From: Campylobacterota bacterium
GTDB lineage: Bacteria; Campylobacterota; Campylobacteria; Campylobacterales; Sulfurovaceae
DNA: 39,242 bases
NCBI GenBank assembly: GCA_013607775.1
Contig: VCAW01000076.1
Coordinates: 1-39,242, forward strand
Direction: 5' to 3'
Positions 12,388-13,194 of the stretch are shown piece by piece. The position numbers were made by a program, and so were the translations under genes. The notes beneath the pieces are model-generated. The model saw only the letters and a program-made list of their open reading frames with translations. It did not search any database and had not been told where the DNA came from. How positions within the stretch are numbered: position 1 is the stretch's first letter; every line of letters begins with the position of its first letter.

Positions 12388-13194
12388 ATGATTAAAGAGA
12401 TTATTACTTACCCAACTGTTGAGAGTTTAGAATTTGGTGGAGTGGTACGTCACTTTGATGAAACACTCTTAGAAACGATACAGGATCTCAAAGATACTAT
12501 TGTCGCTAATAACATAGAATCATTGTCTGCCTTTCAGATAGGTTCACCTCTCGCCGTCTTTGTTATCTTGCAAGACAATGGTGAATTTTTAGAAATCATC
12601 AATCCTGTTATCATTACCAGAGAGGGTGTCGTACATCCTACGGAAACAACTGCCTATTTCCCTGGACTAAGTGCAACAACCAAACGCTATGAAAAGATAA
12701 AAATCACTTATGAAGATGCTACGGGGAAACAACAGTTTCTGGACGCAGAAGGCAAATTGGCTATACAGATACAACGTAAAAGTGATTATCTTTTAGGTGC
12801 AAACTTTAGAATACGTATGAGCAAAGAAGAACAGCAACTTTTTGATGCCAAATTAGAATATGGTACCGATGCATTCAAAAACAATGACTGCCCTACGACA
12901 TTTAAACGAGATAGCATCTTACGTGTTATTAAATATGGACTCTATGCAGGTATTATAGGTATTATCTTAAGCTTTTTCCTGTCAGCATCTAATGTAGCAG
13001 TGCTAAAAACATACGAAGAGTACTTAAGTATGACACTACTTGGTCTGCTTGTTATTTACTTTTTTTATGCACAATATGAGGGGAGACAATATACCAATTG
13101 TTCATCTTGTCAATTGGGAAATATTGTAGGTACAGCTACCATACAAGGGAGTAAGATACTACTTCTTTTTCTTGCTAGTTATTTTATACTCTAA
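12388..13194 (+). CDS. Peptide-deformylase-like domain lacking catalytic residues, fused to C-terminal TM helices
   Basis: PDF-like layout: ITYP...; SLSAFQIG (for GLAAPQIG); EIINPVI; FPGLS (for EGCLS); QRKSDYLLG (for QHExDHLxG); followed by three hydrophobic segments. Confidence 0.7.
   Translation: MIKEIITYPTVESLEFGGVVRHFDETLLETIQDLKDTIVANNIESLSAFQIGSPLAVFVILQDNGEFLEIINPVIITREGVVHPTETTAYFPGLSATTKRYEKIKITYEDATGKQQFLDAEGKLAIQIQRKSDYLLGANFRIRMSKEEQQLFDAKLEYGTDAFKNNDCPTTFKRDSILRVIKYGLYAGIIGIILSFFLSASNVAVLKTYEEYLSMTLLGLLVIYFFYAQYEGRQYTNCSSCQLGNIVGTATIQGSKILLLFLASYFIL

What the first reader, a model, noticed from the sequence alone, without database searches (positions are those of the whole stretch)
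12388..13194. Membrane-anchored pseudo-peptide-deformylase
The N-terminal ~170 aa follows the PDF layout, but the catalytic residues are replaced. The QHExDHLxG motif is QRKSDYLLG (His to Arg, Glu to Lys, His to Tyr, spacing intact; nt 12772-12798). EGCLS reads FPGLS (metal-ligand Cys lost). Only the motif I Gln (SAFQIG) remains. It is fused to about three TM helices with a CSSC pair between the last two. A non-catalytic deformylase fold at the membrane suggests a sensor or binding role (e.g. for formyl-Met peptides). I know of no described function.
Basis: partly seen in the sequence, partly recalled or inferred. Interest (0 to 1): 0.75.

Follow-up and report, generated by a model that had tools for sequence, protein, structure and literature searches.

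The report
Dead, membrane-bound deformylase beside sulfide oxidase
An enzyme fold that normally trims new proteins has lost its active site in these sulfur-oxidising bacteria, been fused to a membrane module with three unchanging cysteines, and kept next to a sulfide-oxidising enzyme over long evolutionary distances, so it is probably a repurposed partner of sulfide oxidation and is wrongly labelled 'peptide deformylase' in databases.

Summary
ORF 12388-13194 has a true peptide deformylase (PDF) fold (Pfam E 1e-24; AlphaFold model matches H. pylori PDF) followed by three TM helices. In 95 aligned relatives all metal ligands and the catalytic Glu are gone, replaced by a conserved motif: Q-R-K-x-D-Y in most, Q-Q-M-M-D-F in 4. 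dN/dS is about 0.03-0.17, and the genome keeps a separate canonical def. One correction: motif II EGCLS aligns with ETTAY (Cys to Thr88), not FPGLS. Besides CSSC there is a third invariant cysteine, C168; all three are 100/100 and predicted on the cytoplasmic membrane face. The proposed formyl-Met sensing is not supported: S1' pocket and backbone-glycine positions are polar or variable. New finding: in 72 of 80 genomes the gene follows a sulfide:quinone oxidoreductase (SQR)-family flavoprotein; a 53-aa conserved ORF not in Pfam lies between them at nearly every such locus examined. All 80 have the SQR; 33 genomes have the SQR without it. Best explanation: a pseudoenzyme repurposed as membrane accessory/thiol-redox subunit of this SQR module. 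The linkage is well supported; the mechanism is inferred.

The parts
12388..13194 (+). pseudo-peptide-deformylase gene (pPDF), 268 aa
   Evidence: ORF; PF01327 E 9.6e-25; relatives in 80 of 399 Campylobacterota genomes, window genome included
12388..12858 (+). PDF-fold domain, aa 1-157
   Evidence: AF2 model mean pLDDT 86.5; the 50 best Foldseek hits are all PDFs
12526..12543 (+). motif I remnant SAFQIG (Gln50 kept; the two motif-I Gly replaced)
12643..12657 (+). motif II remnant ETTAY (canonical EGCLS); metal-ligand Cys is Thr88 here; T in 83, S in 11 of 95
12772..12798 (+). motif III remnant QRKSDYLLG (canonical QHExDHLxG); R130/K131 in 91 of 95, Q/M in the other 4
12889..12891 (+). invariant Cys168 (C-P-T motif just before TM1)
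   Evidence: 100 of 100 aligned sequences
12865..13191 (+). C-terminal membrane module: helices 174-195, 200-234, 243-267; no significant match in Pfam or PDB sequences
13099..13110 (+). invariant Cys238-x-x-Cys241 (CSSC) in the TM2-TM3 loop, predicted cytoplasmic face
   Evidence: 100 of 100, and charge distribution of the loops
10622..12094 (+). SQR-family flavoprotein (SQRl), 490 aa, with the three SQR cysteines C146, C184, C418
   Evidence: PDB A. aeolicus SQR E 3.8e-42; Cys conserved in 67 of 67 pPDF+ loci
12133..12294 (+). 53-aa conserved mini-ORF MKQEEANFAKSDQF...KSH, no Pfam match
   Evidence: next to SQRl with or without pPDF; alignment; Pfam
12300..12325 (+). intercistronic hairpin between mini-ORF and pPDF; a hairpin of different sequence sits here in most relatives
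   Evidence: fold z -6.1; relatives

Best explanation
pPDF is an ancient catalytically dead deformylase derivative, tied by an integral membrane module to the cytoplasmic side of the inner membrane. It is an accessory subunit of a sulfide:quinone oxidoreductase-like enzyme made of SQRl plus a 53-aa peptide. Shown by sequence: loss of the active site, purifying selection, one clade apart from canonical PDFs, membrane fusion, and strict co-occurrence and operon-like linkage with SQRl-mini. Inferred: the PDF fold acts as a rigid docking domain rather than a peptide binder, and the three invariant cysteines (C168, C238, C241), on the predicted cytoplasmic membrane face, form a thiol/disulfide, persulfide or metal site that anchors, relays from or reports on the sulfur/quinone chemistry of SQRl.
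For: All metal ligands and the catalytic Glu are replaced in 95 of 95 relatives. dN/dS is 0.03-0.17 in most close pairs in both domains. pPDF forms one group apart from canonical PDFs, support 100/99. 80 of 80 pPDF+ genomes carry SQRl against 113 of 399 overall (hypergeometric 1e-57, uncorrected for phylogeny). SQRl lies directly upstream on the same strand in 72 of 80, including deeply diverged families f1, f4, f6, f8, f16 and f18. SQRl is a true SQR relative with all three SQR cysteines. SQRl and pPDF trees are broadly congruent. C168, C238 and C241 are invariant 100/100. A second set of pPDF paralogs in Sulfurimonas-type genomes sits beside AhpD-like and DsrE-like genes, also thiol/sulfur proteins. 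One genome of family f8 has a stand-alone 98-aa relative of the CxxC membrane module directly after SQRl-mini.
Against: No physical interaction was tested. 33 genomes have SQRl without pPDF, so it is not obligatory. pPDF evolves several-fold faster than SQRl, so contact surfaces may be small. Eight genomes hold pPDF away from SQRl. The gap before pPDF often holds a hairpin, so expression may be uncoupled.
Confidence: 0.5

Rival explanations
1. pPDF is a membrane thiol/sulfane-sulfur sensor that feeds the hybrid PAS histidine kinase and response regulator encoded next to it in Sulfurimonas.
For: A hybrid kinase lies just downstream of pPDF in 36 of the 81 loci compared and a response regulator lies nearby; the three invariant Cys suit redox sensing.
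Against: The kinase stays directly behind SQRl-mini where pPDF is missing (L168, L172) and is absent next to pPDF in Sulfurovum, the window included.
Confidence: 0.17
2. A maturation or membrane-insertion factor for SQRl or the mini-peptide rather than a subunit of the working enzyme.
For: Same linkage data; SQRl starts straight into its FAD-binding motif, with no obvious signal peptide; PDFs normally act on nascent chains (general knowledge).
Against: 33 genomes keep SQRl without pPDF; no direct evidence.
Confidence: 0.2
3. One reading: a binding or sensing domain for N-formyl-Met peptides or nascent membrane proteins.
For: PDF fold and Gln50 kept; a small partner protein is encoded next door.
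Against: S1' pocket positions 44, 86 and 125 and Gly89 are polar or variable in 95 relatives, Gly45 is Ala in most; no metal ligands.
Confidence: 0.07
4. A deformylase still active with a different metal site (cryptic type 3 PDF).
For: Type 3 PDFs with altered motifs can retain activity (PMC12690207).
Against: Cys90, both His and Glu133 are all replaced, mostly by non-ligating or cationic residues; type 3 PDFs are described as altered in motifs I and II.
Confidence: 0.03

Closest known systems
Peptide deformylase, PF01327 (e.g. H. pylori Def, PDB 2ew7)
   Same: Fold, order of the three motif positions, residues Q50, E86, R100, Q129, D133
   Different: No Cys/His/His metal site, no catalytic Glu, polar S1' region, fused to a 3-TM module with three invariant Cys
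Type 3 accessory PDFs (S. aureus, S. pneumoniae, T. brucei; reviewed in PMC12690207)
   Same: Accessory PDF copies with altered catalytic motifs, inactive or weak in several cases
   Different: Described as altered in motifs I and II; here motif III is also lost. The review text contains neither 'transmembrane' nor 'Campylobacterota'
Sulfide:quinone oxidoreductase (PDB 3hyv, A. aeolicus)
   Same: The upstream neighbour SQRl belongs to this superfamily and keeps its three Cys
   Different: I know of no PDF-fold or 53-aa partner described for SQR; the SQRl type (IV or VI?) was not assigned here

Membership tests
Peptide deformylase (structural family PF01327) | Sequence profile match and fold | tested here: met
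   E 9.6e-25, 87.4 bits against cut-off 22.8; Foldseek TM 0.80 to H. pylori PDF
Peptide deformylase (enzyme) | Metal ligands Cys (EGCLS) and two His plus Glu (QHExDH) | tested here: not met
   T/S, R/Q, K/M and Y/F/I/M at these positions; the canonical residue in none of 95
Peptide deformylase (enzyme) | Hydrophobic S1' pocket and Gly45/Gly89 for the formyl-Met substrate | tested here: not met
   Polar, variable residues at 44, 86 and 125; G45 to A in most; G89 to T/K/S
Peptide deformylase (enzyme) | NCBIfam equivalog cut-off | tested here: not met
   Best 58.7 bits against cut-off 190
Peptide deformylase (enzyme) | Deformylase activity | not testable with these tools
   Needs purified protein or complementation
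Type 3 PDF | Clade membership with described type 3 PDFs | not tested
   No type 3 reference sequences were brought in; only separation from canonical Campylobacterota, E. coli and B. cereus PDFs was tested
SQR (for the neighbour 10622-12094) | Homology and three redox Cys | tested here: met
   E 3.8e-42 to 3hyv; C146, C184 and C418 align with its three Cys
SQR (for the neighbour 10622-12094) | Sulfide:quinone activity | not testable with these tools
   Needs biochemistry

The most novel reading that the evidence does not exclude
A translation-processing metalloenzyme fold has been exapted into a membrane subunit of a three-part sulfide:quinone oxidoreductase complex (SQRl, 53-aa peptide, pseudo-PDF), whose three-cysteine site on the cytoplasmic face carries sulfane sulfur or electrons between SQR and the cell.
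Probability: 0.2. Interest if true: 0.8.

Novelty: new variant of a known kind. Interest (0 to 1): 0.6.

Why it matters
It is a clear case of a pseudoenzyme made from a housekeeping metalloenzyme: conserved across several families of a phylum, annotated 'peptide deformylase' where seen, and tied to a sulfide-oxidation gene in sulfur-oxidising bacteria common at vents and redoxclines. If the link holds, SQR in these organisms is a multi-protein membrane module rather than a lone monotopic enzyme, which is directly testable in cultured Sulfurimonas or Sulfurovum.

Tried and rejected
Decayed pseudogene: rejected by conservation and dN/dS; one relative on a Sulfurovum mangrovi plasmid is itself broken by in-frame stops. 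Formyl-Met sensing: pocket test negative. Displacement of pPDF alone into the SQR slot in the window's lineage: dropped because the SQRl tree places that group near Sulfurimonas too. Known fold or family for the TM module: no PDB sequence match, only sub-threshold Pfam hits. Literature searches for PDF pseudoenzymes, PDF plus SQR, or PDF plus Sulfurovum gave nothing on point. The SQR type could not be assigned; NCBIfam's type III model scores far below cut-off. Distribution outside Campylobacterota could not be tested well: reaches close relatives only; the titles of its 80 loci are Campylobacterota except one record titled only 'bacterium' (L038, 57% identical).

Full report
Observation. The ORF at 12388-13194 encodes 268 aa. 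Residues 3-149 match Pep_deformylase PF01327 at E 9.6e-25 and solved PDFs at up to E 8e-15. An AlphaFold2 model from 55 sequences (mean pLDDT 86.5) matches H. pylori PDF first (E 1.3e-12, TM 0.80 on the target). It falls short of active-PDF models: NCBIfam equivalog models score 58.7 bits at best against a cut-off of 190. The genome holds a separate canonical def (G000:C8, E 6.3e-50).

Motifs. Retained residues (Q50, E86, R100, Q129, D133) are, from general knowledge of the fold, mostly structural. The S1' pocket positions 44, 86 and 125 are mainly D/E/N, T/P/S and D/E/A/K; Gly45 and Gly89 are replaced in most. This argues against binding formyl-Met peptides.

Not decay. Relatives of about 30-90% identity occur across Sulfurovum, Sulfurimonas and some Arcobacteraceae. 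The altered motifs are conserved. dN/dS in close pairs is mostly 0.03-0.17 for both domains. pPDFs form a single group apart from canonical PDFs (100/99).

Membrane module. Model helices are 174-195, 200-234 and 243-267. Mean K+R versus D+E (2.8/2.8 before TM1, 0.7/2.2 in the TM1-TM2 loop, 2.0/1.1 in the TM2-TM3 loop) fits a cytoplasmic PDF domain and CxxC loop. C168, C238 and C241 are invariant in 100 of 100. The module has no significant Pfam or PDB relative.

Gene neighbourhood. Upstream lies a 490-aa flavoprotein homologous to sulfide:quinone oxidoreductase (A. aeolicus SQR E 3.8e-42) with all three SQR cysteines, then a 53-aa ORF at 12133-12294 without Pfam match. In 399 Campylobacterota genomes pPDF is in 80 and this SQR in 113; all 80 are inside the 113. 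In 72 of 80 the SQR is directly upstream on the same strand. The order holds in deeply diverged families. The mini-ORF follows SQRl even where pPDF is absent (all 20 loci, 5 of 5), so SQRl-mini is the core pair and pPDF an addition. Co-occurrence is confounded by phylogeny; the adjacency across lineages is the stronger evidence.

Further links to sulfur/thiol chemistry. A second pPDF group in Sulfurimonas-type genomes lies beside MerR, AhpD/CMD-like and DsrE-like genes. One genome of family f8 (Arcobacteraceae by inference) has a 98-aa stand-alone relative of the CxxC membrane module right after SQRl-mini (E 8e-6), hinting that the membrane module, not the PDF domain, is the SQR-linked part; this is a single case. 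An intercistronic hairpin of changing sequence lies between mini-ORF and pPDF in most loci.

Reading. Shown: dead PDF fold, conserved, membrane-fused, genetically tied to an SQR. Inferred: a membrane accessory subunit of that SQR with a three-cysteine redox, sulfur or metal site. A sensor for the neighbouring kinase and an SQR maturation factor remain open. In literature held here, type 3 PDFs are described as altered in motifs I and II and sometimes inactive (PMC12690207); a Sulfurovum study reports type II, IV and VI sqr genes, with types IV and VI upregulated during S0 reduction (PMC10045233), but I could not map SQRl to a type. The database record of a Sulfurovum mangrovi relative names it peptide deformylase and the SQR FAD-dependent oxidoreductase.

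Noticed in passing
window 12133-12294: Unlisted 53-aa ORF, strongly conserved (ends KSH), always beside the SQR-like gene in loci examined; predicted long C-terminal helix 31-52. Possible SQR small subunit.
   Followed up: partly
window 12300-12325: Stable hairpin between mini-ORF and pPDF; position but not sequence conserved in most relatives; no T-run in the window. Possible expression-ratio element.
   Followed up: partly
L176:4669-4962: Stand-alone 98-aa CxxC membrane protein after SQRl-mini, related to the pPDF C-terminal module but without a PDF domain.
   Followed up: partly
L035-L063: Second pPDF group, mostly Sulfurimonas-type genomes, many beside MerR, AhpD/CMD-like and DsrE-like genes.
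   Followed up: partly
L010, L017, L020, L022: Branch in which the QRKxDY motif is QQMMDF, so Arg/Lys are not universal.
   Followed up: no
L180 (Sulfurovum mangrovi plasmid record): pPDF relative annotated as two deformylase pieces; in-frame stops interrupt it. The whole SQRl-mini-pPDF set lies on a 395-kb plasmid record.
   Followed up: partly
window 17229-18647 (-): 472-aa ORF without Pfam or PADLOC match, between a UvrD-type helicase gene and a PD-(D/E)XK nuclease gene (AddAB-like pair).
   Followed up: partly
window 5868-10350 (-): Family 5 solute-binding protein with two adjacent permease-like ORFs, apparently a peptide ABC transporter.
   Followed up: no
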